Positions 4,503-24,263 of a stretch of 24,263 bases of DNA are shown here, one piece after another; position 1 is the stretch's first letter; each line of letters opens with the position of its first letter. The DNA is from a virus. The DNA is taken from positions 1-24,263 of IMG/VR virus record IMGVR_UViG_3300021090_000100; one strand, written 5' to 3'. The notes under the pieces were generated by a model that was not told where the DNA came from, searched no databases, and saw only the letters and a list, made by a program, of their open reading frames with translations. Both the position numbers and the translations under genes were made by a program.

Positions 4503-4985
4503 ATGAAAAAATTTGATCCAAAGATTATTCCTTATATGGCGGCAATCACTACGGCCATCATGCTCATGCGGGCGGCTGTGGATCACTTCGGAGTGTGGGG
4601 ATGGGCTATCGGGTTTATGGCCGGACTAGTAGCCAGTTTCTCCCTGGCTATTGCAGGCAGTAAGATCAGTGATATTGCAGCTAAGCGCAAGCCTTTGGCT
4701 TATGTCTCCCTGGCTTTCATGGTCACCATTAGTCCCATCGTGATTGCCTTGAGTGATCCTACTCCCAATGCAGCAACTTGGGCCTGGGCCATGTTTCCTG
4801 ATGCTGCAATTCTGTTGGCAAGTGCGGTGACTGGCAAGTCCCTGCTTGCGCAAGACGAGCCACCAGCTAAAAGCCAAAGCAAGCCAGCTAAACCAGCTTT
4901 TAGCTGTAAGGCAGCTGGCTGCACAGCCAAATCGTTCGGCTCACAGTCTGCTTTGAATGCTCATCAGCGAAAACATAAGCCATGA
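4503..4985 (+). CDS. four-span membrane protein with C-terminal C2H2 zinc finger, 160 aa
   Basis: Hydrophobic segments lie at about residues 8-24, 32-52, 65-83 and 92-110. An Ala/Lys/Pro linker (about 116-131) leads to a last segment with C135, C140, H154 and H158, spaced C-x4-C-x13-H-x3-H, with the expected core aromatic F145 and leucine L151. This closely matches the classical C2H2 finger. The implied protein is a membrane anchor holding a cytoplasmic nucleic-acid or protein-binding finger. Actinobacterial Spd/DUF2637-type proteins also join four spans to a DNA-binding tail, but I see no sequence identity to claim. It overlaps the HExxH gene by 4 nt (ATGA). The site before ATG 4503 is weak (GGAGG about 13 nt away). 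Function unknown. Confidence 0.75.
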   Translation: MKKFDPKIIPYMAAITTAIMLMRAAVDHFGVWGWAIGFMAGLVASFSLAIAGSKISDIAAKRKPLAYVSLAFMVTISPIVIALSDPTPNAATWAWAMFPDAAILLASAVTGKSLLAQDEPPAKSQSKPAKPAFSCKAAGCTAKSFGSQSALNAHQRKHKP

Positions 4986-5398
4986 GCAAGGGATTTTTGA
5001 AGATCATAAAAGAACTAAATTATCCGCCGATCTTTCTGGTTTCTCCCCATCAATTTTCTATGATTGATGGGGAGGGAAAGAAAGACGAAAATAGTCTCAG
5101 TGCCCTGGTGGTAGGTATCGCTGCCACTGGTTATCCAATCATTACTATTCATTCCACGTTGGAAGGCAAGGAACGAGACAATACCATTTACCATGAACTT
5201 GCTCATCATCTTTGGCCCTGGAGGCAGCATTGGTGGATTGAAATGTTTGCTGAGAAGATGGCAAATGGCGGGGGACGTGGATACTATAGCAAGAAATATA
5301 AAAAGAAAAGAACCGATCTTCCTACAAAAGCAAGGCTTCGTAACATGGCCCGCAGACAGGCTGAGAAATTGAAAGAACGATACAAATTGCCCAGGTAG
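4982..5398 (+). CDS. HExxH metallopeptidase-like protein, 138 aa
   Basis: The start ATG overlaps the previous stop as ATGA with no separate ribosome site, so translation is probably coupled. Residues 71-75 are HELAH, preceded by strand ITIHSTLEGKERDNTIY, and E87 or E91 in the following helix (WIEMFAEKMA) could be the third zinc ligand. This fits compact zincin folds of the phage/ImmA-like type. The C-terminal third is strongly basic (KKYKKKRTDL ... RRQAEKLKERYK), possibly nucleic-acid or membrane-surface binding. No signal peptide or membrane span, so it would act in the cytoplasm. Its obvious partner is the adjoining zinc-finger membrane protein. Substrate unknown. Confidence 0.75.
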   Translation: MSKGFLKIIKELNYPPIFLVSPHQFSMIDGEGKKDENSLSALVVGIAATGYPIITIHSTLEGKERDNTIYHELAHHLWPWRQHWWIEMFAEKMANGGGRGYYSKKYKKKRTDLPTKARLRNMARRQAEKLKERYKLPR

Positions 5399-5521: not shown

Positions 5522-5806
5522 ATGTTGTCTCGTTTTCTGCAATGGCTCAAATCCTTTTTTGGGTCTAATAAAAAGTTTGCTGTCCCTGATGTTCCCAATA
5601 GTAAAATATGGGTGGTCATGCCACTGACCTATGAAAAATGGAAACATCCATCCACCAAAGCAAAACACTATAGAGCCGTTTTCTCTAATGGCTTGGTTCG
5701 CAGGACAGGCAAACAGAAATTCAAAACTGCCACACAAGTTCTGGCGTTTGTTGATCGTTACACAGGTCGTATGTGTGAAATATACAAACAAAGGAGGGGG
5801 CTATGA
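5522..5806 (+). CDS. hypothetical basic protein, 94 aa
   Basis: An ATG at 5516 is only 1-2 nt behind the AGGAG at 5510-5514, so ATG 5522 (7 nt spacing) is preferred. The N-terminus MLSRFLQWLKSFFG is a short amphipathic or hydrophobic helix, followed by a basic body (KAKHYRAVFSNGLVRRTGKQKFKTATQ) and a basic end. It overlaps the endolysin start by 4 nt (ATGA), so the two are translationally linked. A small membrane-touching protein directly before an endolysin could be a holin or lysis regulator, but it has no full membrane span. Not recognised. Confidence 0.6.
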   Translation: MLSRFLQWLKSFFGSNKKFAVPDVPNSKIWVVMPLTYEKWKHPSTKAKHYRAVFSNGLVRRTGKQKFKTATQVLAFVDRYTGRMCEIYKQRRGL

Positions 5807-6876
5807 TATTTCAGGATAAAGGAATCATAGGGCCTGATGTTTCTTTTTATCAGGCTGATCCCAGGCAGAACCAGTTCATAGACTTCAATAAGATGAAAGA
5901 GTATGGGGTTTCTTTTGTCATCATAAAAGCAGGGCAGCGCAATTATTTTGATCCTGCTTTTGCTGTCAACCGTGCCGCAGCGCGAGTCGCAGGACTTCCC
6001 AGGGCCTTCTATTGGTTTTTGGATTATCGAGACAAGGGGAAAGCCCAGGCCCAATTCTTCTGGAATCTAATCAAAGACGATCCTGGAGAGGGCCCGCTGA
6101 TTGTGGATTTCGAGGATGGATCGGGGGGAGACTGGCGTAAACTTTATGATTTCATTGTGGAGTTGCAAGTTTTATCAAAATATCCATCAGACCGAATTTG
6201 GATTTATACCGGATATTACTATTGGTTGGATTTTGGCCCGCAGTTTACGGGGGACGAACTCTGGTTCATCGCATACCGCTTATGGATAGCCTCTTATACT
6301 GATCGCGTTGATCTAGTCAAAGTCCCTCGTCCCTGGATAACGGCATCTATGTGGCAAAAAGGAACAACTGTCGTATATGGGCCCGACATGGGGGTGCTGT
6401 CCCTGGAGATTGATTTCAATATATTCAACGGAGACAGAGAACTGTTCAATCATTATTTCCTGACTAATTATGTCCCTGATCCACAGGAAGATCATCCACA
6501 GGAAGAAGAAGGAGAGTCAATGAAATACAAAGTTGTTTGGACGAAGGGAGTTGCCAAGAGAACACAGCCAACCACCAGCAATAGTTATACAGGACTGTTA
6601 CTGCCGTATCCCAACGAAGTTGAAGTTATTGAGGATCATATTGATGATTTGAATGATCCATCCAACATCAACAAAGTGTGGGTAAAGTTAGCAGATGGAT
6701 ATTATGCAGCAAAGAATTATCCAGACAGCTTGGGTGTTCCACGTGTGCGGATGGAAAAAGTGGAGACGCCTGTCCCTGATCCTGATCCTATCCCTGATCC
6801 AGAACCCACCATCGTCCACAGGATTGACGTTTACTCGGACGGAAAGGTGGCTATAGATGGCAGCAACCCCTTCTAA
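5803..6876 (+). CDS. GH25 muramidase endolysin with SH3-like binding domain, 357 aa
   Basis: The N-terminal domain (about 8-215) is a glycoside hydrolase family 25 lysozyme: D12 in GPDVSFYQ, D102 and E104 in LIVDFED, and IDFN at 203-206, matching the barrel-strand positions of the family. GH25 enzymes cleave the N-acetylmuramyl-beta-1,4-N-acetylglucosamine bond of peptidoglycan. An acidic linker (about 225-239) leads to an SH3-like region (about 241-322), then a Pro-Asp linker (PVPDPDPIPDPEPT) and a short end containing RIDVYSDGKVAIDG. There is no signal peptide, so export by a holin is expected. A strong site (AAAGGAGGGGG) precedes ATG 5803. A second site at 6509-6514 before in-frame ATG 6520 could yield the binding domain alone. 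The gene overlaps the next by 20 nt. Confidence 0.9.
   Translation: MIFQDKGIIGPDVSFYQADPRQNQFIDFNKMKEYGVSFVIIKAGQRNYFDPAFAVNRAAARVAGLPRAFYWFLDYRDKGKAQAQFFWNLIKDDPGEGPLIVDFEDGSGGDWRKLYDFIVELQVLSKYPSDRIWIYTGYYYWLDFGPQFTGDELWFIAYRLWIASYTDRVDLVKVPRPWITASMWQKGTTVVYGPDMGVLSLEIDFNIFNGDRELFNHYFLTNYVPDPQEDHPQEEEGESMKYKVVWTKGVAKRTQPTTSNSYTGLLLPYPNEVEVIEDHIDDLNDPSNINKVWVKLADGYYAAKNYPDSLGVPRVRMEKVETPVPDPDPIPDPEPTIVHRIDVYSDGKVAIDGSNPF
6509..6522 (+). promoter_or_regulatory. internal ribosome-binding site and start codon within endolysin
   Basis: AAGGAG (6509-6514) stands 5 nt before in-frame ATG 6520 (Met240), exactly at the boundary between the acidic linker and the SH3-like domain. Initiation here would make a 118-residue C-terminal product. 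Several characterised endolysins make a separate wall-binding subunit this way. Confidence 0.6.
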
Positions 6877-7980: not shown

Positions 7981-8272
7981 TTCGATGTTCTTTCTCGCTA
8001 ACAGACGGATCGGGCAGTGGAAGATCAATTTTCTCGTGGACTTCCACTACGAAGTTGATCGTAAAGTGATCGCCTTCTGGCAAAAGACTGGTATGCGCTA
8101 TGTTAGAAGAAAGAACTTTGTAATTGATCTTACCTCCAAGCATACTTTGGATTGCTACTGCCAGAAGGGGTTCAATGCTTTTTCTCAAAACCACGTTATC
8201 ATCGTGTCTGTATTTTCTATAGCGAGGCTTGTCGGGCAAGGCTGGTACACTGAGATCAGGAATAGGAGACAT
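7973..8272 (-). CDS. hypothetical protein, 99 aa
   Basis: The start at 8272 shares one base with the stop of the upstream methyltransferase gene (TAATG), and GAAAGGAAAAC lies 8-12 nt upstream. A longer frame from 8302 is less likely. The product is soluble, with a Pro-rich N-terminus (SPIPDLSVPALPDKPRYRK), a helix (SIEPLLAVAIQSML) and paired strands (INYKVLSS, FTINFVVEVHEKI). A small alpha/beta domain is plausible. No family recognised. It overlaps the downstream membrane gene by 8 nt. Confidence 0.6.
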   Translation of the reverse strand: MSPIPDLSVPALPDKPRYRKYRHDDNVVLRKSIEPLLAVAIQSMLGGKINYKVLSSNIAHTSLLPEGDHFTINFVVEVHEKIDLPLPDPSVSEKEHRNE

Positions 8273-9159
8273 TAGGAAGTTTTCCTTTCTTGGGCAGGCC
8301 ACATAATTGGATTAGTGGCGTGCCGGATGGCGAGCCTATCGGACATGTCTTTTGCTCCCTGGGTAATTTCTCTTTTGTGAGTTGGACGAACCATCCACCT
8401 GGGAAGATGCTTTTCAAGCGGGATGTACCCATAAGTCACAGGCTCTTTCATGTGAGGTAATCCCCACGTGAACCAGGCCACAGAGTAGTCTGACCTAGAG
8501 ACATGTGTTACATATTTTTCTTTTTCTTTATCCCAAAAGAGTTTGGGATCGCCATTCTTATCGAACTCTCCCCACCCAAGATTGGGCATGTGGAAATGAA
8601 CGCGCCGATTGAGAATGATAATGCTCATGCCGAACCGCTGGAACTGCGCCTGTGCCCGCGCTGCGGCCCAGGTATCGAATGGCATCAGGAGGGCGAACGG
8701 CTGATGATTGTCAAAGCTGCGCTCAATCCATTCATATTTTATCGAAAAGGGGGGATTGGTAATCTGGAGTTGTGCTGTTAGCTTGGGGGGAACAGTTAGA
8801 TAGTTTGTACCATCCAACTCCAGGCCAGTTTCGATTACGGTATTGCCATTCAGGGCCCTGAGTGCCTCTCCCAGGAAACCATATTTACTAGACGCACTTT
8901 CCCATATAATCCACTCCTTTGGAACATAAGGTAACAGAGGAAGTACAGCGTAGGGTGGAGTTTGAGCCTCATCTCTTTCTGGAATGTTTTTGAGATTTGA
9001 CTTTGCTGGTTTTCGTTTTGAGCGTCGGAGGGACAAGTCAATTGCTGCTTGCTCTTTTTTAGTAAGTTTTGCCTCCTGGAGATCACTGAGATGTTTCTTT
9101 ATGATCTTCTTTTCATTTTTGGTGAATGTGCTTTTGATGACATCAATGGGATTATTCAT
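8272..9159 (-). CDS. SAM-dependent methyltransferase-like protein with NPPF motif, 295 aa
   Basis: GGGGAGCG lies 4 nt before ATG 9159. The frame extends to 9201 but the upstream Met has no site. Residues 1-60 are basic and helical. The Rossmann-like core follows: IIWESASSKYG (84-94) in the place of the SAM-binding motif I, ITNPPFS (133-139) as the amino-methyltransferase motif IV, then PFALLMP (154-160), RRVHFHMP (185-192) and WFTWGL (229-234). This order matches a phage family usually annotated as DNA or adenine methyltransferase. Motif I lacks the usual glycine-rich loop, so SAM binding may be altered or lost. It overlaps the deoxyribosyltransferase-like gene by 8 nt (ATGAATAA). Substrate unknown, probably DNA. 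Confidence 0.7.
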   Translation of the reverse strand: MNNPIDVIKSTFTKNEKKIIKKHLSDLQEAKLTKKEQAAIDLSLRRSKRKPAKSNLKNIPERDEAQTPPYAVLPLLPYVPKEWIIWESASSKYGFLGEALRALNGNTVIETGLELDGTNYLTVPPKLTAQLQITNPPFSIKYEWIERSFDNHQPFALLMPFDTWAAARAQAQFQRFGMSIIILNRRVHFHMPNLGWGEFDKNGDPKLFWDKEKEKYVTHVSRSDYSVAWFTWGLPHMKEPVTYGYIPLEKHLPRWMVRPTHKREITQGAKDMSDRLAIRHATNPIMWPAQERKTS

Positions 9160-9628
9160 AGGACGCTCCCCGCGCAAGAGATAATTCTTTGAGATAATCA
9201 TATGCGTTATCTAATGTTTGAAAATGGATTGTTGCAGCTTGGCGCACAAATGCGTGGTTGTGAACGTTGTCATTAGGCATGACCAGAATAACATGTTTAC
9301 CCAGGTGGGAGGCCCAAGCTAGTTCCATCATTGTGCCAATGGAAATATGATCTTCTGATGTGGAGAGATCAACCAAAACAACATCAACAAGGGAAACCAT
9401 CCAATGATCCCGTTGAAAGATCGCATGATCGTTTGCAATGAGATGGTCATACCCTCCAGATTTGAATGTAGCTTCCGTTCGTAAGTTCATCTTGCCAAGC
9501 ATCGGCTGATAAACCATATAACCAAAGTCAGACAGGATGGCTATCTTTTCTTCATAGCGAGAAACTACTCCTTCCCCTGTTTGCCCTGTGATCGGGCCTG
9601 CCAGATAAATACTAAGTTTGTTGGACAT
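9152..9628 (-). CDS. nucleoside 2-deoxyribosyltransferase-like protein, 158 aa
   Basis: AAAGGAG lies about 13 nt before ATG 9628. An ATG at 9640 is too close to it (1-2 nt), so 9628 is preferred with some doubt. Family signatures are YLAGP at 8-12, an aspartate-bearing segment (RDHWMVSLVDVVLVDLS, 73-89), and SIGTMMELAWA (97-106), whose E102 sits where the catalytic glutamate is expected. The length fits the family (about 150). Known members swap bases between deoxynucleosides or hydrolyse modified (deoxy)nucleotides. Here, between two methyltransferases, a role in nucleotide-pool or base modification is plausible but inferred. Confidence 0.75.
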   Translation of the reverse strand: MSNKLSIYLAGPITGQTGEGVVSRYEEKIAILSDFGYMVYQPMLGKMNLRTEATFKSGGYDHLIANDHAIFQRDHWMVSLVDVVLVDLSTSEDHISIGTMMELAWASHLGKHVILVMPNDNVHNHAFVRQAATIHFQTLDNAYDYLKELSLARGASYE

Positions 9629-9648: not shown

Positions 9649-10437
9649 CTATTGATCGTTACTAAGAATTACGATCTCATTTGATTTTTTGTTTTTGCCC
9701 ATTCCGTATATCCAGTGGACAGGCAGAATAGTGTTATCTTTATATAACTTACGCATGTGTAGACTGTCATTGTAGGACATAATCCAATGTTTGCGATTTT
9801 TCAGTAGTTCTGCCAGGGCAAAATGATTGAAGCCTTTGTGGGCGTCTCCTTTATTTCCATAGAGCGCCTGGTCAATTTCATAGGGCGGATCAAGATAAAG
9901 GAAATCATCAGTTTCTTTTATCACATCAAAGGCATCACCATGCTCTACTTTCAAATTATTTACATGGAAGTCTGCCAGGCGCTTTATGGAACTTTCTGTA
10001 AAGCGAGGATGACCTGGAGACATGCCACCCGAAAACGTAGTGCCGGAAAAGGAAGCGCGATTTAGAACATAGTAAACCGCAGCCCGTTCCAGCTTGGTAG
10101 GAATGTCCTTATAATATTTTTGAAGTGAGTAAAACATCCATTTGGTGATCGGATAGTAGAGACGAACCATTTCCACTAGATCATCCTGGTTTTTCAATAG
10201 CTCCTGCCAAAATTCCACTACCGGAAGAAAAATATCATAGCCCGTGACTTTCATGCGTGTGGTCAGGGCCAATTCCAACGATCCGCCTCCGAAAAATGGT
10301 GCGGTTAGCTTAGTTACATAGGAGGGAATCAACGGATAAAGAAACTTGACCGCCCTACTTTTTCCGCCTGGGTATCTCAGGGGAGAATGAGCATAAGCCG
10401 CAGGAAGAATAGGAGTAATACCTAGAGTAGTTGACAT
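9649..10437 (-). CDS. dam: Dam-like D12-class adenine-N6 DNA methyltransferase, 262 aa
   Basis: All family landmarks are present: PLRYPGGK (19-26), FFGGGS (48-53, SAM-binding motif I), NRASFSGTTFSGG (126-138), LDPPY (182-186, catalytic motif IV) and the late SNEIVI (252-257). The length fits D12 enzymes (260-280). They methylate adenine N6, most often in GATC. The target here is inferred, helped by the abundance of GATC nearby. It is the first gene of a leftward operon. The AGGA site (GAAAGGAACATATC) is about 14 nt from ATG 10437 with no better in-frame start. It is driven by the promoter at 10484-10513. The gene symbol reflects family, not proven specificity. Confidence 0.9.
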   Translation of the reverse strand: MSTTLGITPILPAAYAHSPLRYPGGKSRAVKFLYPLIPSYVTKLTAPFFGGGSLELALTTRMKVTGYDIFLPVVEFWQELLKNQDDLVEMVRLYYPITKWMFYSLQKYYKDIPTKLERAAVYYVLNRASFSGTTFSGGMSPGHPRFTESSIKRLADFHVNNLKVEHGDAFDVIKETDDFLYLDPPYEIDQALYGNKGDAHKGFNHFALAELLKNRKHWIMSYNDSLHMRKLYKDNTILPVHWIYGMGKNKKSNEIVILSNDQ

Positions 10438-14063: not shown

Positions 14064-14284
14064 ACGGACTCAAAATAGAGATGATGCAAGGGGCGGTCAA
14101 GAAAGCCTTTCAACGAACACAGAAGGTCGGCAACATCGAAGCCGATCCTGATCTCGCTCTTTATGGCACTCTAAAAGCAGGACATTTCCAAGAACTTATG
14201 AAAGTTTATGGAGAGGGGCCTATCGTAGACTACATCAAACTTATGGAAACTAAAAAGATTATGAATAGCGGAGGGAAAAGATAA
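14060..14284 (+). CDS. small helical head-region protein, 74 aa, GTG start
   Basis: GTG 14060 overlaps the portal stop (GTGA) and GGGAGGA sits 6 nt upstream, inside the portal end. The product is soluble and mostly helical (LKIEMMQGAVKKAFQRTQKV ..., KAGHFQELMKVYGEG) with a basic end. No family recognised. Its position suggests a head accessory or portal-associated factor. It overlaps the next gene by 1 nt (TAATG). Confidence 0.65.
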   Translation: MNGLKIEMMQGAVKKAFQRTQKVGNIEADPDLALYGTLKAGHFQELMKVYGEGPIVDYIKLMETKKIMNSGGKR

Positions 14285-15129
14285 TGCCAACGAAAAAAGA
14301 TTTCGCGGGGAAAACCAAGACCAGCAAAACTTATGACAAGGATTGGGTTTTTTCTGGTGGAGCATGGACAACTCAGAAACAGGCCAAAGCAGACATTGCT
14401 AACAAGAAGGAAGCCCAAGCCTATAAAGCGAATTTGTCGGCTCAGGCTGCGCCTTCTCCCGTCCCAGGTGTCCCTGGAACTCCACCCGCTTCCGCCACAG
14501 CCCCGATTGATACCAGTGGACTAGTGACATCTGCGCCTGTGCCCATGCCCCTTCCTACGCCTGCTCCTTCACTTACTCAAACCGCCCCCGATACTTCCAT
14601 TCCAAATTGGTGGATCGGCAATGCCATTACAAATCCATCAACGCCCGAAGCACAATTTGCAAATGTAGCAAATGCCCTACTGCCAACTCTTGCCCCCGAA
14701 GATCAACGCACCCTGGCGGGTTATCTTTCACAAAATCACAAAGATGTGTTTGGTGGATATTCCAATACAGATTTCGGATCAGCGCCGACAGCCATCACCG
14801 ATGCAACCCGCAAACAATATCTAAATCCACAGCGCGCACAATTGGCAATCAGTTTATTGGATCGTATGCAAAAAGCATCTGGAGCGACTGAGATGGGTGC
14901 TGGTTATGACTTCCTCAAGAATGCCATCAACCTCATCAATCAATTTGCAGTAGATGGAGTGATGACCAGAGAGAAGTACGGTCAATTCACCAACGCTGTT
15001 TCCAGTTTGACCAAGAATGCTGGACAAGGAATGTCATCTTATGCCAACCTGGCCCAATTGTTCAACCTGCCTCAATTTACCGCAGGCCCGTTGATCTCCA
15101 ATACTCCCAATTCAACTTTATTCGTCTAA
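14284..15129 (+). CDS. head-region protein with proline-rich linker, 281 aa
   Basis: ATG 14284 follows GGAGGG with good spacing. Layout: a basic N-terminal stretch with an FSGGAWTTQKQAKAD segment (1-50), a Pro/Ala/Thr linker (about 56-106) and a helical C-terminal domain (about 112-281: QFANVANALLPTLAPEDQRTLAGYL, LAISLLDRMQKASG, YDFLKNAINLINQFAVDG). The two-domain, disordered-linker design suits a virion or assembly protein that bridges partners. No family recognised. The giant gene follows 10 nt later. Confidence 0.65.
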   Translation: MPTKKDFAGKTKTSKTYDKDWVFSGGAWTTQKQAKADIANKKEAQAYKANLSAQAAPSPVPGVPGTPPASATAPIDTSGLVTSAPVPMPLPTPAPSLTQTAPDTSIPNWWIGNAITNPSTPEAQFANVANALLPTLAPEDQRTLAGYLSQNHKDVFGGYSNTDFGSAPTAITDATRKQYLNPQRAQLAISLLDRMQKASGATEMGAGYDFLKNAINLINQFAVDGVMTREKYGQFTNAVSSLTKNAGQGMSSYANLAQLFNLPQFTAGPLISNTPNSTLFV

Positions 15130-15139
15130 GAGGTAGTTC

Positions 15140-18100
15140 ATGCAAATCAAAGCAGGAGGGGGAGAGCGTAAACAAAAGGATGACGTTGCCTCTCCTCCTA
15201 TTCACACAACAGACAAATTCAAACAAACCGTAAAGCAGATCAAAGAACGAGACGCAGCCCAGGCTGCAATTGACAGCGCTACTGTATCTTCACCCACGCC
15301 ACCCAAGCAGCCGACATTCAATGTCCCCATGCCTGGGTCATCTTCGCTACCTGCTAGAAATAGAAGTCGTTCGCTTGATCCGGCTCTCTATGAGAAAGAA
15401 CTGGAAAAGGCTGTACGTACTCAGATTGCGCATGAATATCCTAACCAGCCCCCGATGGGAATGATGCAAGATAAAGTCAAGAAATTCATTGACACAAAAG
15501 TTTCCGAGAGAATGGACATCATCAAGACGCCCCGTTATGTATTTCTATCGGATGACACGCCTTTCCTTCTGACCAAGAAAGACGAACGGGCAGAACTCGA
15601 AAGATCACTTGCCGGAGAAAGTCACTGGAAACGTTTGTGGATGCTGACAAAATATGACCTTGCCAACACTGTTGGTGAGATCACACGTTTGATCGGTGAA
15701 CCAGCTATGCGCACCAAAGAATATATTACTGATACTGGTGTGCAGGGTAATACTATAGGCAGTGTAGCCCAACTTGGATATAACTCTGCTCTCCTGGGGA
15801 TTGAATATATTCGTGCCTCTGATGCTGGCTGGAAATATGGCACACAGGCTCGCATTGACAAAACTAAACAAGACATCGAAGCCATGAAATATACTGATCC
15901 AGCCAAAGCAACAGAACTTGTAACCTACTTGGGGCAACTGGAAGAACAAAAACAAATCAATCAGTCTATTACAGATCGCATCAAAGTTGCAAAGCAGGCA
16001 GTGAAAAACTCATGGGCCAGTTTACAAGGAGAAATAGAAGAATCACACGATCTGCCTTATACGGGCATGGGGGCAGGGCCGAAATATGCCGCCAATATGC
16101 GGGAACTAGAACAAAAAGAAGCCGAGGCTGATGCCAAAGCTGTCACTATTCGTGCTCAGGCTTATCAGGCCTATGGAGAAAAGAACTTCGAACGCGCACT
16201 CGAACTAACTAAACAAGCCCAGGATGAGGATCGTCGTGGGACGACGGGTGATTATTATGGAGCGTACACTTGGATCAGAGAGCCAGAACGCGAAGCTAAA
16301 TTCAAAGAAGATGCTGCCTTTTTGGAACTCCAAAAAGGTGCGCCACTTGACAAAGAAGAAATCCGCCGATTGAAAGAATTTCATGCAAATGCGTGGACAG
16401 AGATCGGGGGCGAATTTATTTATGATCCCATCAATCTTATACCCGCCTCAGTCCTGGAAGATATTATCAAACTTCCCCTTAGGGGAGTATCCAAAGCCAG
16501 TCAGGCCGTTGCTAAGGAATTTCCTGTTTATGAAAAAACCTTACATGTCCTGGGATCGCCTGTGCGCTGGCTGAGGCGACAAAGTGTTACCAGCGGTGCA
16601 AGTCAGGTTGCGGTCACTGTCCATAATCAACTTCAACGGATCAGCAGTGCCTATATCAAATCAGATGATATGGTCAAGGCTCTCGACCAAGTAGGGAACT
16701 TCGTCACGGAAGCCAAATCAGTCAGAACAGAAGAAGCGGCACGGGCGATCTTTGAGAAAGGCAAGACCCAAGTCCCTGGACTTCAAAATATTTCATTTAC
16801 TGACTTCAAACAACTTATGGATGCCGCCGATCATGTTGCTGCGGACGATGGCGCATGGGGTAAAATATTCAGCGATGCGCTCACCAAAGCAGAAGATGAC
16901 ATGCAACACATTGCTGCGCGATTCAACAAAAATCCAGATGAACTGATCTCTGATATTTCAAAGTCCAGACGAGCACTGAGGACTACATCCAATAGTTTCA
17001 AAGAAGCCTTTACAGATGCCCACCGTATCTATAAAGGATCGTCCTTCGTAGATGACACCATCTCCGGTTGGACAACTAAAGTCATGCGGGAACTTTCTGG
17101 AGAGGAAGTCAGTGACCTTCTCAAAACCAACAAGCTGGATGAATTTCTAACCAAATATTCAACCACCCTTAGTCCCAAATCTAAAACAGCCTGGAAATAT
17201 AACAGGCAGGTAGTTGAGTCTGTTCTACAACGCACTGCACAACTCAAAGACTTTTGGGTCAAGCTGGCATTGTCAACTCCACGCTATCTTATGAACAATC
17301 TTCCTGATACTGCCATGCGGGATGTAGTAGCAGGAGGAAATCTATTCGATGATCTGGTTACGTTATTCACTAGTACACAACGAACTCTCGCTGATGACCT
17401 GGGATTTGTACCTGCTGAACTGGCACAGAAAATATCTAGTGCAGGGATTGATTTTGGAAGCGATGTTCCCACTCGTCTGCTTTATGATGGATGGAAACCT
17501 AAAACAGGATTGTTCTCCTATATCAAATATGAATTTGGACGACTCAAGCAAACCGATCATATGCTCGCTAAGAGGGAAATTATAGACGGGATGCTGACCA
17601 GCCTTCCAAAAGGTAAACTTAGAAATGCTCTGGCAAATCTGATGGATGGTTTCTCCAATGTCCCCCTGGCTCTCAACGCCTATGCGGATGGGATAGGTAG
17701 TTTCAATGAAGCTATTGAATTTACCTTTCGCCTCAGAATGTTTCATCGGGAATATTTCAAACTGCTGGAACGGATTGAACCAAAGTTCATGGAGAAAGGA
17801 CTGGCAGGCTTATCTCCAGCCACCAAAGGAATCGCCAAACAGATATGGCAGGCTGCCGAAGGCAATCCCCGTAGAGTGACAGCCTACGCAGAGGCTCTGG
17901 CAAAAAAGTCAATCAAGGGAACTCCGGCTGAATGGGCATTCATTGTCCCGCCTGAAATTGAACAAGTTACAAAAGGAATGGACATTGCTGATCGACAGGT
18001 GTTCATTACGTCCGTGCGCAATGAATTGGATGCGTTTATTGATACATCTACCAAAGCGGGCAAAGACCTGGATGAAGGAGACTTCAATAAATTCTTTGAT

Positions 18101-21100
18101 GATTACGTGGACAAATTCAGGGACGAGATGCAGGCTCGCATGTCGCAGGCCCATGATTTTCGTAATATGGAAGGATCAATTGCAACGGATGCCGTGTTGT
18201 CTGATGCTCCTGATCTCAATAGATTACAGGGATCGTTGCCGCTTCCGAAAGATGAATCTCCAATCAATGCGATCATCGAGGAAGCTACCAGTAATCTCAA
18301 GAGAGGAAAACGGGCCCTAACCGGAGATATTGTTGATGACTTTCAAACTTCCCTTTCTGAATATGCCAGAATGGATCGAGTGGCCGGTAAAGATATTCGG
18401 GTGGTAAATAAGGAAGGCCAAATTGTCATCAAGATCGGAGAAGATGCCGCCAAGAAAAAAATCACTAAACTCTATGACGACATCAATGAAGCTGTGGTAC
18501 AGGTATTTAGAAACACAGATACCGACCTTGTTCTTCATTCTGGATTTAGGGATTTGGATCACTACGAAGATACCTTGAGAAGGTTTATTGATGACGCCAC
18601 TGAAATTTATCATGAGGATGAACGGCAATTCCTTACCATTGTCAATGAGATGGAAACTCATCCACAACTCAAGACATTACTACAGCAAACACTTCCGAAA
18701 GACAAGGCACTTCGCTATGACAGCACAATGGATGTCTACCGCGATCTTGGGGTTTATTCGGATAGCTATGGACTTGTACGTCCTCCCGAAGAAGTATTTG
18801 AAGATGCGGCTCAAAAGTTACGCCCTGTGCCTGGTTCTCATGTGGCCGCCGCCAATGAAGTCAGGGTTGCTACACGCCAACTTGCTGAACATGCAAAGAC
18901 CTTAGACCCCGAAATAACAAATAAGGTTACACAGTTTCTTGATCCATTCGCAGTATATCGGGAAGAACTCAAGCAGGTTTATGCTTTCATCTATCCTGGC
19001 CCATTGCTGAAATCCACAACAGGCGAAGGACGACACGCTGCCTGGGATTTATTTTATAAGATGAGCGAAGAAGAATTTCTAAGAGAATCAGAGGTCAAGA
19101 AAACCCTACTCCAACTCTTACAATCCAATCCTGAAAAAGCCGCCAAGTATATGGATGAAGCATCCGGCGATTTCGTAACTTTCTTTCTCAAGAAGAATGG
19201 AGTTTCCCTAGAGTGGGACGCCAACCATGAAGTCCTAATGAATGTACAGATCACAACGCCCAACGGAATAAAAAATTTCACTGCTCGTCGTGATCTCGCA
19301 TACATTCAACGTCGCCTGTTCACTAATGACATCAACAAAAAATTGGCAGAGAACCCACTTATCCAAATCAGATCAGATGTCAAACTCCAAATGAAACGAC
19401 AGGTGCGCAATGCACTGCGGGACACTTTCGATATTCCTACGCGTCATGCCGATGCGTGGGCTACAGCAATTGACAGTCATGCACAAGCCTGGGCTGATGT
19501 CACAGGACAGCCCATTGAAAAATACTATGAACGATTGGGTTTCCAAAAACTTGAAGGTGAAGCTACACAGGGTTTGGCGGTCAAGGAAAATTTCCGCGTT
19601 ACCAAGCGTGGGGCGGTCTCTCGAACGCCCGATGGTGGATTTACATTCTACGGTTTAGGTCAGTCAAACTTTGAATCTATGGTTCGTGAAACGGGCGAAC
19701 TGTTTTTTGATGATTTGGTCTCAATGGCCGAGCACAGCCCACAACACGCGGATGATCTCAAAGCCATGAAAGAATTGATCGAAAGTAAAACAGCCAGGAA
19801 GATAAAAAGTAACCGACTGGAAAAAATTCATTCAGATGCCCTGGCTGAAATGTTCACTGGTTATGTTCACACTGGCACAGGCCCACACATAAAGGTCAAG
19901 GGCGGACTGGAAAAGTTCAAGGGATGGCTTTCCTCAACCTTCGATGCTATAAAAGATACACCCATCACAGGTGAGATGAATGATGACACCTTCCGTGTTA
20001 TGGATCGTCTGTTCAATGAAGGTAAATTGAACGATGTGCCAAAGATCAGTAAACGCAGGATCAAGATCATTGCAAAAGAAATGGGAATTGAAGCGGATGA
20101 TGAGACCCTGCTCAAGATCATCAATGAATCTATGGTTGATCCAGCACGCGGACAATTGGTCATCGAACAGAATGAACTGAATAAGAAATTATGGTCAACT
20201 CAATCCAGAGAAGAACTTGTGCCGATACAAGATCGATTACGACAGGTGGATGAACTTCTCAATCCTTCCACGCCCATGCTTACAATCTCACCACCTACAT
20301 TCAAATCATTGGATGAAATTCCAGTAGAAGTTCTCACACAGACACTATCGAAAGGCAAGGAAAGTAAGATCGCACAGGAACTCCAGGAAGGATGGGACGT
20401 ATGGAAAACACAGCGCGGTCTGGTAGGCTTCCCCGATGATGCCTTGTCAAGCCTTGACTCATTCAAAGAATATCTTCGTACTCGCATGGGACAGGAGTGG
20501 AGCGAAGCATCTAATTACTACAACCGATTATTATGGGAAACGGAACAATTTGAAGATTCACTATTGAACCATCACGCAGGCGACGACTTCGCTGAGGTAC
20601 TATTCCCGCGCGTACACGAAGCCAATATTTCCAATGGCATGAAAACATTTCTCCGCAACCAGGAAACAATGGGCAATAGTTATGAGTCGGCTCTCCAGGC
20701 TCTTGATGTGTGGAAAAAACACATGGGAAAGATGGCCACTGATGGACATCCTGCATTTGTACTTCCAAAGGAAGCACAGGCCGAATTACTCGCCTGGAGT
20801 AAGGGGGCCGCCACTGATAAGTCCGACATGATGGATATTCTTATTCATGGCGGAGACTTCAATGGATCAACACTTGAGGGTGCTCTAGATAAGACTAATC
20901 GTTTCATGTTGGACTACACTCATACAAGCATCTTCGATCAAACCATGAAAAATTTCTTTCCATTCTGGATGTTCCCATCCAGATCGTTCCCATTTTGGGC
21001 CGAGACAATGGCAACCCATCCACAGATAATCTCGAACTATGAAAAGATACAACGCCTTTCTAGATCACAAAGGTATCAAGCAGGCGCAGTAACCTCGCGG

Positions 21101-23647
21101 GGCGCGCCGCTTCCCTCATTGGATGGATACATCAAACTCCCTGGGACTGACTTGTGGTTCAATCCAATTGCTCCCCTGTCCTTCCGGTATGTGCTGGACA
21201 TTCAAAAAACAAAGGATGACATTCAGTATGCGGCACAGTCCGAAGATGAAATAGAACCCAAAGCCTTTATGGTACGAGAGATGATGCAAACAGGCCAAAT
21301 TTATGGATTCTCCCTTGCGCCCTGGATGACCTATCTCATGAAGAAAGCCTACAACATCTCAGATACAATCATTCCAAGCTACCCCCTCATACCTGAAATC
21401 CAGTTGATCCCGCGTTGGATGGTGAGCGATCTTATCCATAAGGCCAACAAGATGAATTTATTTGGAATGGAAATCCAGGGCCTCGGTGATGCAATTTATC
21501 CAGAAGCCCCCTGGCATGATTATATGGTCGAGCGTCGTATTTTGGAAAATGCCCTCGGACAAATTAGATCAGGAAACCTAAGCGAAGCCGACAAGATCAA
21601 GCTGATGCACCAGGCTCAAAATGCAATCAAATACAAAGGAGAGGATGTTCTTTGGAAGCAATCTTATAAAGACCTAACCAGCGAAGAATGGACACGCAGC
21701 GTTTCTTCCTTCTTCTCCGGTGTATATCCCAAGAATTTTGGTGACAATCAAGCTGAGATGCTGCAACTGCGCAATGAGCTAAACCTGTTGAAGTCAGCAA
21801 TGAATAATGAATTTCAAGCAAATATGTTTGATCTTCCTGTTCAGGCAGATACAGCCTGGAACAATTACCTCAACGCCCTGGACACACCAGAAGGCTGGAA
21901 CTATCGTTTATATACAGACATTGGGTGGGTCAAAAATGCTCAGGGGGAATTGACACGCGATCCCAAAGAACGCAACAAGGCGCTGGCGATCAAGATCAAA
22001 CAGGACGAAGATCAACAAGTCTATTACGACAAGATGTCTGATCTCCAGAATGAATTCAATAAACGAATTCGGGCGCTGCCTGTTGGTACAGATTGGGAAC
22101 AAATGAAAGTTGTTTATGACTGGTATTCCAAAGAAAGATCATCTCTGGATTATCTGCGATCATTTGAAAAAATCTATGGGACAAATAAACCACAGGAATT
22201 GATCCAGCAGGATATTGCAAAAGACTGGTTCAGAGAAATTGGCGCACTCAAGCCAAGATGGGAACTCACCACTGGTGAGACCTATGAGGACTATCAACAT
22301 AGAGTAACAGAATGGGAAACCAATCTGCCAAACATTGCATCCATTTTTATGCGCTCCTATGTGCGAAGGCACGACCTTATCAATACAATGAACTCATTGC
22401 GCGATGACCAGAAATTCAATCTCGGAACATTCAGTCAGGAACTTGTAGCCATAACCAACGTCCAGGGCCTTGAGCAATGGGAGAAAAAGAATGATGACAT
22501 ATTTGATGCCCTCAACAAAGCATGGAAATCAACATATTGGGACAATTATTGGAATGGAGTAATTGGCAAAAGCGGCTATGAAGTAGACCTGGCCGAACAT
22601 GACTTCTATGCCAAACACAATGAACCTCCATCATCTGATGAACTCTATCAGTGGATCACTGCCTACTACGGAACAGGTAAATTCACACGAGAGGAAATCG
22701 CCAAGTGGGTGGATGAAACAGACACCATGAGTGTCGAACAGCGTCGGCTTATTACCAAAGACGATCCTGTGGACTTCCAAAAACGTCAGGGAGTCTGGGA
22801 TATGCTTTCATGGATTGGGCCGGGCAATCGTAATCGAAATGTATTCAACACAGCTTTCGTCAATGCAGGCGGCGACCCCGATGCACTAACAGTCTGGTAT
22901 GAAGAAAGTGGCGAAGCCTATAAAACAAAACCCGAAAAGATGGATCAGCTTTACAATGCAATTCAGGAAGCCATTCGAACATTGGGTCTCAAACCACCGG
23001 ATCGGCCTGAGTTGGTTCGCTACATTCAGGCACAGTCCGAAAACGATACCTTCAAGCAGCTTATCTCCAATGAATTGGGCAACCAGTTTTTTGATTACAC
23101 TGACGAAGATGGAAAAATTCAACCTGGCGTATTCAGTTATTACAACAGTTTGGACACACAATCTAAAAGAGCGTTTCGTAAGGAACGCACCGAAGAATAT
23201 GATTCTATTCAGGCATACTATGATATGCGTGATGCGTTTGGAGAGGAACATATCACCTGGAGCGATTATTATGGATCAGAGACCACCCCAACGGTCTCAC
23301 TGCCAACCGCTGCTGAAGGGTCAACCTTCACTCCCCCACCGCTGCGTGGTTTTCATTCAGGGGGCGGAAGAAATAGAACCCCTGTTGCGCCCAAATCATA
23401 TGCCACCGCGACTCGCAGTAGCTCCAACTATTTCCCAAGTTTCAACATTGGGGGAGACAGAACATCCAATTATTTTTCCCCAGGACTTTACAGCCTGGTA
23501 GGCAGCAAAATGGCATGGGAAATTACCAGTGTCTTTGCAAGCGGAAGAAGGATCAGCACATCAGGCGTGAACTTCCTGCGGTCGGTTGCCAGTCGGTATC
23601 CAGAGTACGCATCCGAAATAAATAAGATACTTAGTAAGGGCACTTGA
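15140..23647 (+). CDS. giant virion-associated-type protein, 2835 aa
   Basis: A single uninterrupted frame of 8.5 kb between portal and scaffold. The start ATG 15140 has AGAGGT upstream. Residues 1-85 are polar, Pro-rich and probably disordered. Helical, charged stretches follow (about 230-370), with coiled-coil-like heptads. Residues 712-720 (STPRYLMNN) and 1938-1953 (an FPFW repeat) are short hydrophobic/aromatic anchors inside otherwise soluble, mostly helical sequence. The C-terminal 150 residues are Gly/Ser/Thr/Pro-rich. The two anchors recall the pattern of large polyvalent proteins packaged in phage heads (from memory, not a database match). Position where a MuF-like minor head protein often lies supports an internal or ejected protein. 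No enzyme motif found. Confidence 0.75.
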   Translation: MQIKAGGGERKQKDDVASPPIHTTDKFKQTVKQIKERDAAQAAIDSATVSSPTPPKQPTFNVPMPGSSSLPARNRSRSLDPALYEKELEKAVRTQIAHEYPNQPPMGMMQDKVKKFIDTKVSERMDIIKTPRYVFLSDDTPFLLTKKDERAELERSLAGESHWKRLWMLTKYDLANTVGEITRLIGEPAMRTKEYITDTGVQGNTIGSVAQLGYNSALLGIEYIRASDAGWKYGTQARIDKTKQDIEAMKYTDPAKATELVTYLGQLEEQKQINQSITDRIKVAKQAVKNSWASLQGEIEESHDLPYTGMGAGPKYAANMRELEQKEAEADAKAVTIRAQAYQAYGEKNFERALELTKQAQDEDRRGTTGDYYGAYTWIREPEREAKFKEDAAFLELQKGAPLDKEEIRRLKEFHANAWTEIGGEFIYDPINLIPASVLEDIIKLPLRGVSKASQAVAKEFPVYEKTLHVLGSPVRWLRRQSVTSGASQVAVTVHNQLQRISSAYIKSDDMVKALDQVGNFVTEAKSVRTEEAARAIFEKGKTQVPGLQNISFTDFKQLMDAADHVAADDGAWGKIFSDALTKAEDDMQHIAARFNKNPDELISDISKSRRALRTTSNSFKEAFTDAHRIYKGSSFVDDTISGWTTKVMRELSGEEVSDLLKTNKLDEFLTKYSTTLSPKSKTAWKYNRQVVESVLQRTAQLKDFWVKLALSTPRYLMNNLPDTAMRDVVAGGNLFDDLVTLFTSTQRTLADDLGFVPAELAQKISSAGIDFGSDVPTRLLYDGWKPKTGLFSYIKYEFGRLKQTDHMLAKREIIDGMLTSLPKGKLRNALANLMDGFSNVPLALNAYADGIGSFNEAIEFTFRLRMFHREYFKLLERIEPKFMEKGLAGLSPATKGIAKQIWQAAEGNPRRVTAYAEALAKKSIKGTPAEWAFIVPPEIEQVTKGMDIADRQVFITSVRNELDAFIDTSTKAGKDLDEGDFNKFFDDYVDKFRDEMQARMSQAHDFRNMEGSIATDAVLSDAPDLNRLQGSLPLPKDESPINAIIEEATSNLKRGKRALTGDIVDDFQTSLSEYARMDRVAGKDIRVVNKEGQIVIKIGEDAAKKKITKLYDDINEAVVQVFRNTDTDLVLHSGFRDLDHYEDTLRRFIDDATEIYHEDERQFLTIVNEMETHPQLKTLLQQTLPKDKALRYDSTMDVYRDLGVYSDSYGLVRPPEEVFEDAAQKLRPVPGSHVAAANEVRVATRQLAEHAKTLDPEITNKVTQFLDPFAVYREELKQVYAFIYPGPLLKSTTGEGRHAAWDLFYKMSEEEFLRESEVKKTLLQLLQSNPEKAAKYMDEASGDFVTFFLKKNGVSLEWDANHEVLMNVQITTPNGIKNFTARRDLAYIQRRLFTNDINKKLAENPLIQIRSDVKLQMKRQVRNALRDTFDIPTRHADAWATAIDSHAQAWADVTGQPIEKYYERLGFQKLEGEATQGLAVKENFRVTKRGAVSRTPDGGFTFYGLGQSNFESMVRETGELFFDDLVSMAEHSPQHADDLKAMKELIESKTARKIKSNRLEKIHSDALAEMFTGYVHTGTGPHIKVKGGLEKFKGWLSSTFDAIKDTPITGEMNDDTFRVMDRLFNEGKLNDVPKISKRRIKIIAKEMGIEADDETLLKIINESMVDPARGQLVIEQNELNKKLWSTQSREELVPIQDRLRQVDELLNPSTPMLTISPPTFKSLDEIPVEVLTQTLSKGKESKIAQELQEGWDVWKTQRGLVGFPDDALSSLDSFKEYLRTRMGQEWSEASNYYNRLLWETEQFEDSLLNHHAGDDFAEVLFPRVHEANISNGMKTFLRNQETMGNSYESALQALDVWKKHMGKMATDGHPAFVLPKEAQAELLAWSKGAATDKSDMMDILIHGGDFNGSTLEGALDKTNRFMLDYTHTSIFDQTMKNFFPFWMFPSRSFPFWAETMATHPQIISNYEKIQRLSRSQRYQAGAVTSRGAPLPSLDGYIKLPGTDLWFNPIAPLSFRYVLDIQKTKDDIQYAAQSEDEIEPKAFMVREMMQTGQIYGFSLAPWMTYLMKKAYNISDTIIPSYPLIPEIQLIPRWMVSDLIHKANKMNLFGMEIQGLGDAIYPEAPWHDYMVERRILENALGQIRSGNLSEADKIKLMHQAQNAIKYKGEDVLWKQSYKDLTSEEWTRSVSSFFSGVYPKNFGDNQAEMLQLRNELNLLKSAMNNEFQANMFDLPVQADTAWNNYLNALDTPEGWNYRLYTDIGWVKNAQGELTRDPKERNKALAIKIKQDEDQQVYYDKMSDLQNEFNKRIRALPVGTDWEQMKVVYDWYSKERSSLDYLRSFEKIYGTNKPQELIQQDIAKDWFREIGALKPRWELTTGETYEDYQHRVTEWETNLPNIASIFMRSYVRRHDLINTMNSLRDDQKFNLGTFSQELVAITNVQGLEQWEKKNDDIFDALNKAWKSTYWDNYWNGVIGKSGYEVDLAEHDFYAKHNEPPSSDELYQWITAYYGTGKFTREEIAKWVDETDTMSVEQRRLITKDDPVDFQKRQGVWDMLSWIGPGNRNRNVFNTAFVNAGGDPDALTVWYEESGEAYKTKPEKMDQLYNAIQEAIRTLGLKPPDRPELVRYIQAQSENDTFKQLISNELGNQFFDYTDEDGKIQPGVFSYYNSLDTQSKRAFRKERTEEYDSIQAYYDMRDAFGEEHITWSDYYGSETTPTVSLPTAAEGSTFTPPPLRGFHSGGGRNRTPVAPKSYATATRSSSNYFPSFNIGGDRTSNYFSPGLYSLVGSKMAWEITSVFASGRRISTSGVNFLRSVASRYPEYASEINKILSKGT

Positions 23648-23709: not shown

Positions 23710-23738
23710 AAAACAATTGAAAAGGAGTATTGAACCAA

Positions 23739-24263
23739 ATGGGTGATCTAAATCAAGTTCCAGGGTCAAGCACAGAAGGAGTTTCTGCTCAACCAGTAGA
23801 GACGCCCGTCCAGGAAGTCAGGGTTACCGAACAGGTGACGCCTGCACCAAAGCCCGATGTGGACGTTGAACTGCTAAAAACCAAGTACGAGAAAGACATC
23901 AATCAAATGAAGTCAACTCTACAGCGGCAGACAGCACAGGTCAACAAAGAATGGCAGACGCGCTATGACGGCCTCCAGAAACAAATGCACGAAACCCGCA
24001 TGCAAAGCATGACGGAGGAGGAACGTGGGCGCTACGAACGACAACTTGAAAGTGAAGAAATACAATCTCTCCAGGCCCGCCTGGCAGAGATAGAAAATGA
24101 AAAATCAATGATGAACTCAACCGTCAGTGCATTTTCATTCTTCATTCAACAGGGAGTCCCTGCCGACAAACTCAATCTCGCTGATGGGTACGATACAGTT
24201 GTGAACGCAGGGTGGGAACACCTAACCAGTGAACTCGCTGCATTGCGTCAGGCTAAAGCGAAC
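23739..24263 (+). CDS. scaffold-like protein (C-terminus beyond window)
   Basis: ATG 23739 follows AAAGGAG by about 12 nt. 175 codons are open to the window edge. Residues 1-42 are polar and Pro/Val-rich. Residues about 45-130 are a long charged coiled-coil (LKTKYEKDINQMKSTLQR, ..., RYERQLESEEIQSLQARL), then a hydrophobic helix (SAFSFFIQQGVPADKLNLADG). That layout and the position after the head genes match phage scaffolding proteins that direct prohead assembly. The major capsid gene would be expected just beyond the window. No protease domain is visible in this part. Confidence 0.7.
   Translation, partial: MGDLNQVPGSSTEGVSAQPVETPVQEVRVTEQVTPAPKPDVDVELLKTKYEKDINQMKSTLQRQTAQVNKEWQTRYDGLQKQMHETRMQSMTEEERGRYERQLESEEIQSLQARLAEIENEKSMMNSTVSAFSFFIQQGVPADKLNLADGYDTVVNAGWEHLTSELAALRQAKAN

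What the first reader, a model, noticed from the sequence alone, without database searches (positions are those of the whole stretch)
15140..23647. 2835-residue gene in the slot of a minor head protein
One intact 8.5 kb frame lies between the portal block and the scaffold-like gene and is about a third of the window. Phages of this type often carry a MuF-like or small head gene here. No catalytic motif is apparent, and the sequence is largely helical with disordered ends. An internal head protein ejected with DNA, or a polyvalent effector carried in the capsid, would fit; this is inference.
Basis: partly seen in the sequence, partly recalled or inferred. Interest (0 to 1): 0.75.

Follow-up and report, generated by a model that had tools for sequence, protein, structure and literature searches.

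The report
Giant phage carrier protein, empty bay
This giant gene encodes a conserved carrier-type protein next to a virus's head genes; relatives carry enzyme cargo (ADP-ribosyltransferase, GGDEF, peptidase) in its middle, while this copy is nearly empty and keeps only a dead version of the peptidase.

Summary
The 2,835-residue frame is real and intact. It belongs to a family of giant proteins (2,764-4,126 aa where complete), about 16 distinct ones in viral contigs, nearly always in one slot: portal, small conserved gene, giant, scaffold, N4-gp56-type major capsid gene. No Pfam, PHROG or PDB entry covers the window protein; its relatives explain it. Conserved N-terminal (~650 aa) and C-terminal (~900 aa) parts flank a middle (597-2,072 aa) that accounts for nearly all size variation (r 0.96, n = 12). 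In relatives this middle holds ART-PolyVal, GGDEF and zincin (HExxH) domains, the toolkit of phage polyvalent proteins. In the window the main insertion site is ~49 residues, effectively empty. Its one recognisable domain (residues 1510-1626) is a zincin that lost its metal ligands (HExxH to RETGE); five members share this dead copy as one group, and two of them also have a live copy. Best explanation: an internal head protein acting as carrier for injected effectors, here without recognisable cargo. Packaging and ejection are inferred, not shown; AlphaFold models were too poor to interpret.

The parts
15140..23647 (+). giant protein, 2835 aa (P0001)
   Evidence: intact frame; about 16 distinct relatives, nearly all in the same slot
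16178..18136 (+). conserved N-terminal part, residues 347-999
   Evidence: profile matches in 13 relatives
19667..20017 (+). dead zincin-like domain, residues 1510-1626
   Evidence: hhalign prob 96-97, E 3e-9 to 6e-11; independent HMM i-E 7.5e-8; z 12.5 against shuffles
19685..19699 (+). RETGE, residues 1516-1520, in place of HExxH
   Evidence: alignment with live zincins of relatives and of named phages
20135..20281 (+). near-empty cargo bay, residues ~1666-1714 (about 49 aa; holds ~400-760 aa of insert in P0002, P0003 and G006)
   Evidence: alignments; cargo domains in relatives
20585..23284 (+). conserved C-terminal part, residues 1816-2715
   Evidence: nine-member profile; constant length 853-1002 aa
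20957..20998 (+). FPFWMFPSRSFPFW signature, residues 1940-1953
   Evidence: most conserved stretch of the family
23552..23644 (+). C-terminal tail with YPEY ([HNY]P[EQ][WY] in 10 of 10 members compared) after a low-complexity linker
14284..15129 (+). 281-aa companion gene directly upstream, conserved in the relatives
   Evidence: 61, 34 and 34% identity to the genes at the same place in L007, L002 and L015
12177..14063 (+). portal-like gene (TTG start)
   Evidence: PHROG 64 weak; 83% identical in L007
10569..12167 (+). terminase large subunit
   Evidence: PHROG 9, E 3e-36
23730..24263 (+). scaffold-like gene, cut by the contig end
   Evidence: PHROG 172 E 5e-5, Pfam DUF4355 E 0.001

Best explanation
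The gene encodes the carrier (chassis) of a family of phage polyvalent-type giant proteins. It is made late, together with portal, scaffold and capsid proteins. Its conserved N- and C-terminal parts would place it inside the head near the portal, and it would be ejected with the DNA. The middle is a cargo bay into which effector domains (ADP-ribosyltransferases, a GGDEF domain, a live zincin that could cut cargo free) have been inserted in relatives. In this phage the bay is almost empty and the zincin next to it is a conserved pseudopeptidase, so this copy most likely serves the shared structural or DNA-ejection task. SHOWN from sequence: the family, its slot, constant ends with a variable middle, effector domains in relatives, the dead zincin, the near-empty bay. 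INFERRED: packaging, ejection, cargo release and the role of the dead domain.
For: Same slot beside portal, scaffold and MCP in relatives found independently through the MCP. Total length follows the middle (r 0.96, n = 12) while the C part is constant (CV 0.04). ART-PolyVal and GGDEF over Pfam cut-offs in relatives. Live zincins in five relatives, dead ones in five, the dead ones on one side of a 100/100 branch. The zincin's nearest named relatives include Pseudomonas phage AF gp16 and PfDIW6 gp16, encoded beside genes annotated 'internal virion protein'. dN/dS about 0.12 for the N part, although dS is near saturation. Published reasoning that phage polyvalent proteins lie among late virion genes and are packaged and injected (PMC5512222, PMC9503650).
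Against: No virion proteomics or experiment. Nothing in the window protein itself resembles a proven ejected protein apart from the dead zincin. Structure models failed (pLDDT 42 and 48). The middle (residues 1000-1500) could hide an unrecognised active domain, so 'empty' is a statement about detectable domains. No cultured member of the family was found.
Confidence: 0.6

Rival explanations
1. It is itself an injected effector: residues ~1000-1500, or one of the conserved parts, carry an enzymatic activity too diverged to recognise.
For: Several relatives have long middles without any Pfam match, so undetected domains do exist in the family; the giant diverges 3-4 times faster in dN than TerL or portal, as conflict proteins often do.
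Against: The N and C parts are present in all members whatever the cargo, including those with their own recognisable effectors; no domain match in the window copy.
Confidence: 0.22
2. It is a purely structural inner-core or procapsid assembly protein that stays in the head or acts during assembly and is never injected; the effector domains in relatives act inside the producing cell.
For: Place between portal and scaffold genes; no effector in the window copy.
Against: The recurrent ART-PolyVal, GGDEF and zincin set matches a class argued from context to be injected (PMC5512222).
Confidence: 0.13
3. Tail tape measure or host-surface fibre.
For: Size and helix content alone.
Against: Lies between portal and scaffold/MCP in the readable relatives, with further morphogenesis-region genes downstream of the MCP; no tape-measure or fibre family match; no strongly hydrophobic segment (maximum 19-residue Kyte-Doolittle mean 0.96).
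Confidence: 0.03

Closest known systems
Phage polyvalent proteins (Iyer et al. 2017, PMC5512222)
   Same: Very large protein encoded among late head genes of a portal-terminase phage; relatives carry ART-PolyVal, GGDEF and zincin domains in one chain; the window copy keeps a degenerate zincin of this type.
   Different: The window copy has no detectable active effector; the N and C parts match no described LPD or other polyvalent domain in Pfam; cargo is concentrated in an internal bay.
Zincin-bearing giants of podoviruses: Pseudomonas phage AF gp16, Vibrio phage 1.021 gp18, Caulobacter phage Jess A
   Same: Homologous zincin domain; AF gp16 is encoded beside genes annotated 'internal virion protein'.
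   Different: They carry LPD22 and in part LPD23 or ART-PolyVal; the rest of the chain is unrelated to the window chassis by hhalign.
MuF-type minor head proteins with fused effectors (SPP1 gp7, Mu gp30; own knowledge and PMC5512222)
   Same: Minor head gene close to the portal that can carry effector fusions.
   Different: No MuF domain detected; ten times larger; effectors internal rather than C-terminal.
Cellulosimicrobium phage DS1 1783-aa protein
   Same: A 65-residue match to the FPFW signature (i-E 7e-7 among 25 proteins; tblastn E 0.009).
   Different: Only this short stretch matches; its function is unknown.

Membership tests
Phage polyvalent proteins | two or more domains with disparate activities in one polypeptide | tested here: not met
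   Window copy: no active domain detected. Relatives P0003 (ART + GGDEF + zincin) and L062 (ART + zincin) meet it.
Phage polyvalent proteins | encoded among late virion genes of a portal-terminase phage | tested here: met
   TerL, portal-like, giant, scaffold-like; MCP next in relatives
Phage polyvalent proteins | homology to domains of the polyvalent network (zincin, ART, LPDs) | tested here: met
   degenerate zincin 1510-1626
Phage polyvalent proteins | packaged in the virion and injected with DNA | not testable with these tools
   needs proteomics or infection assays
LPD38 (PF18857) | match to the Pfam profile | tested here: inconclusive
   no match in hmmscan up to E 10 or in genome-wide searches, but no positive control rang in the latter
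MuF minor head proteins | MuF domain | tested here: not met
   no Pfam match
Active zincin metallopeptidase | HExxH motif and third Glu ligand | tested here: not met
   RETGE and Asp in the window copy; HExxH present in P0003, G006, G010, G007 and L062
T7 gp16 / N4 vRNAP inner proteins | sequence homology | tested here: not met
   no PHROG, Pfam or PDB match

The most novel reading that the evidence does not exclude
The family is a modular protein-injection carrier: two constant ends do head loading and ejection, effectors are swapped into an internal bay between a conserved pseudopeptidase and the C part, and an optional live peptidase at the bay's far edge releases them after entry. The window phage carries the unloaded form, which shows that the carrier has a task of its own.
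Probability: 0.35. Interest if true: 0.75.

Novelty: new variant of a known kind. Interest (0 to 1): 0.6.

Why it matters
Polyvalent proteins are known as strings of effectors, but how they are loaded and what their non-enzymatic parts do is open. A family with constant ends, a bay that ranges from about 49 to about 760 residues in the closest members, and a pseudopeptidase shared by five lineages separates carrier from cargo by sequence alone. That makes the carrier function directly testable and points to a natural way of putting proteins into phage heads.

Tried and rejected
Foldseek of the second model gave no match at E<=1e-3 and was ignored. LPD38 membership of the FPFW region was suspected from memory and not supported. 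A ParB-like segment in P0002 (around residue 1640) was suspected by eye; ddrB-ParB gave no match, without a positive control. Two scans of genome contigs found no cellular or prophage relative, so the host is unknown. tblastn of the window giant and portal against named phages found nothing. hhalign of the chassis against AF-type proteins outside the zincin found nothing. NCBIfam and PDB sequence searches of the long middles of relatives gave only weak, implausible matches, apart from the GGDEF of P0003.

Full report
Observation. The frame at 15140-23647 is intact, 2835 codons, and not a chance event. It sits between a TerL-portal-281-aa block and a scaffold-like gene that runs off the contig. 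The window is a whole 24,263-bp IMG/VR record.

Family. Alone, the protein matches nothing in Pfam, PHROGs, PDB sequences or named phage genomes. Related viral contigs were found step by step: L002/G001 (3316 aa, P0002), L007/G004 (N-terminal 938 aa, 51% identical), L014/L015 = G002/G003 (3725 aa, P0003). A separate search with the major capsid protein only gave 12 more contigs. Every locus with MCP identity of 50% or more and readable upstream sequence has a giant gene in the same slot, whereas two loci with 24-26% MCP identity do not. A profile search gave 22 loci, about 16 distinct giants in all, 2764-4126 aa where complete. The MCP is of the N4-gp56 type (PHROG 1357; annotated homologue).

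Anatomy. A profile of nine members defines a C-terminal part of about 900 residues with the signature FPFWMFPSRSxPFW. An N-terminal part of about 650 residues is also conserved. Between them lies a middle of 597-2,072 residues. Across 12 complete members the C part varies by 4% (CV) and the middle by 33%, and total length follows the middle (r 0.96). The end of the N part is uncertain in L059 and L068, where the profile match stops early. An [HNY]P[EQ][WY] motif lies near the end of all ten C-termini compared, after a low-complexity linker in most.

Cargo in relatives. P0002 has ART-PolyVal over the Pfam cut-off and a second ART-like repeat. P0003 has ART-PolyVal (57 bits) and GGDEF (45 bits), both over the cut-offs, followed by an HELGH zincin. 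G016/L062 has ART-PolyVal and HELSH; G007 and G018 have ART matches below the cut-off. HExxH zincins also occur in G006, G010 and G007. G011, L064 and L066 have an HExxxH variant. In P0002, P0003 and G006 the main insertion falls between the positions equivalent to residues ~1666 and ~1714 of the window protein, and the live zincin of P0003 and G006 sits at its C-terminal edge. In the window this stretch is about 49 residues. G005 is also nearly empty there, with about 170 extra residues further on. Several long middles (G010, G011, L054) have no Pfam match or were not scanned with all of Pfam, so their cargo is unknown.

The dead peptidase. Residues 1510-1626 align with the zincin of phage polyvalent proteins: hhalign probability 97, E 5.6e-11, 96 for the window sequence alone, i-E 7.5e-8 with an HMM built only from proteins outside the family, and z 12.5 against shuffles. 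HExxH is replaced by RETGE and the third ligand by Asp. P0002, P0003, G005 and G006 have equivalent dead copies (RLSSE, RQTSV, RQYTV, AQISN). In the tree the five dead copies lie on one side of a 100/100 branch, and the extra live copies of P0003 and G006 pair together (95/95). This fits one inactivation followed by long retention; some end branches are long, so the order within the group is unsure.

Selection. Against L007, TerL, portal, the 281-aa gene and the giant's N part are 86, 83, 62 and 50% identical. dN of the giant is 3-4 times that of TerL and portal, but dN/dS stays near 0.12, with dS close to saturation and therefore rough. The gene diverges fast but is maintained.

Mechanism. 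The slot, the recurrent injected-effector domains and published reasoning on polyvalent proteins (PMC5512222, PMC9503650) point to an internal head protein ejected with DNA. That the ends persist when the bay is nearly empty suggests that they have their own task (loading, portal-proximal structure or ejection). Metallopeptidase pseudoenzymes elsewhere act in protein-protein contacts or scaffolding (abstract of PMC11266112), a reasonable guess for the dead domain. Packaging, ejection and cargo release are not shown here.

Known or new. The kind (phage polyvalent protein) is known. This chassis, the variable bay with constant ends, and the retained pseudopeptidase did not turn up in four literature searches, which is a limited search. 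The window copy itself fails the multi-effector criterion, so it is described as a carrier related to that class rather than as a full member.

Noticed in passing
window 4982-5398 (+): A 138-aa protein with a free-standing zincin-like motif (YHELAHH ... EMFAEKMA); it could be a separate small metallopeptidase of this phage.
   Followed up: no
window 5803-6876 (+): Endolysin with a GH25 lysozyme domain (Pfam E 1e-19), upstream of the terminase; relatives have one at the same place.
   Followed up: no
window 9649-10437 (-): Looks like a Dam-type adenine methyltransferase (YLDPPYE) on the opposite strand, next to a second NPPF-bearing methyltransferase-like gene at 8272-9201 (by eye).
   Followed up: no
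L047 1605-7811 and L034 3-8447 (contig G007, 66,311 bp): The giant is split over the two ends of the contig (2069 + 2814 aa), suggesting a circular or circularly permuted genome and a protein near 4,900 aa.
   Followed up: partly
L024 5046-11687 (Pseudomonas phage AF gp16) and L027 3370-9489: LPD22-bearing giants with a zincin follow genes annotated internal virion protein, the order of the T7 inner-core genes; polyvalent proteins may occupy the T7 gp16 slot in these podoviruses.
   Followed up: partly
L022 6053-6541 (-): TPTPTPT-rich secreted-type protein in contig G002; such tracts are common in Chloroflexota (own knowledge), a weak host hint only.
   Followed up: no
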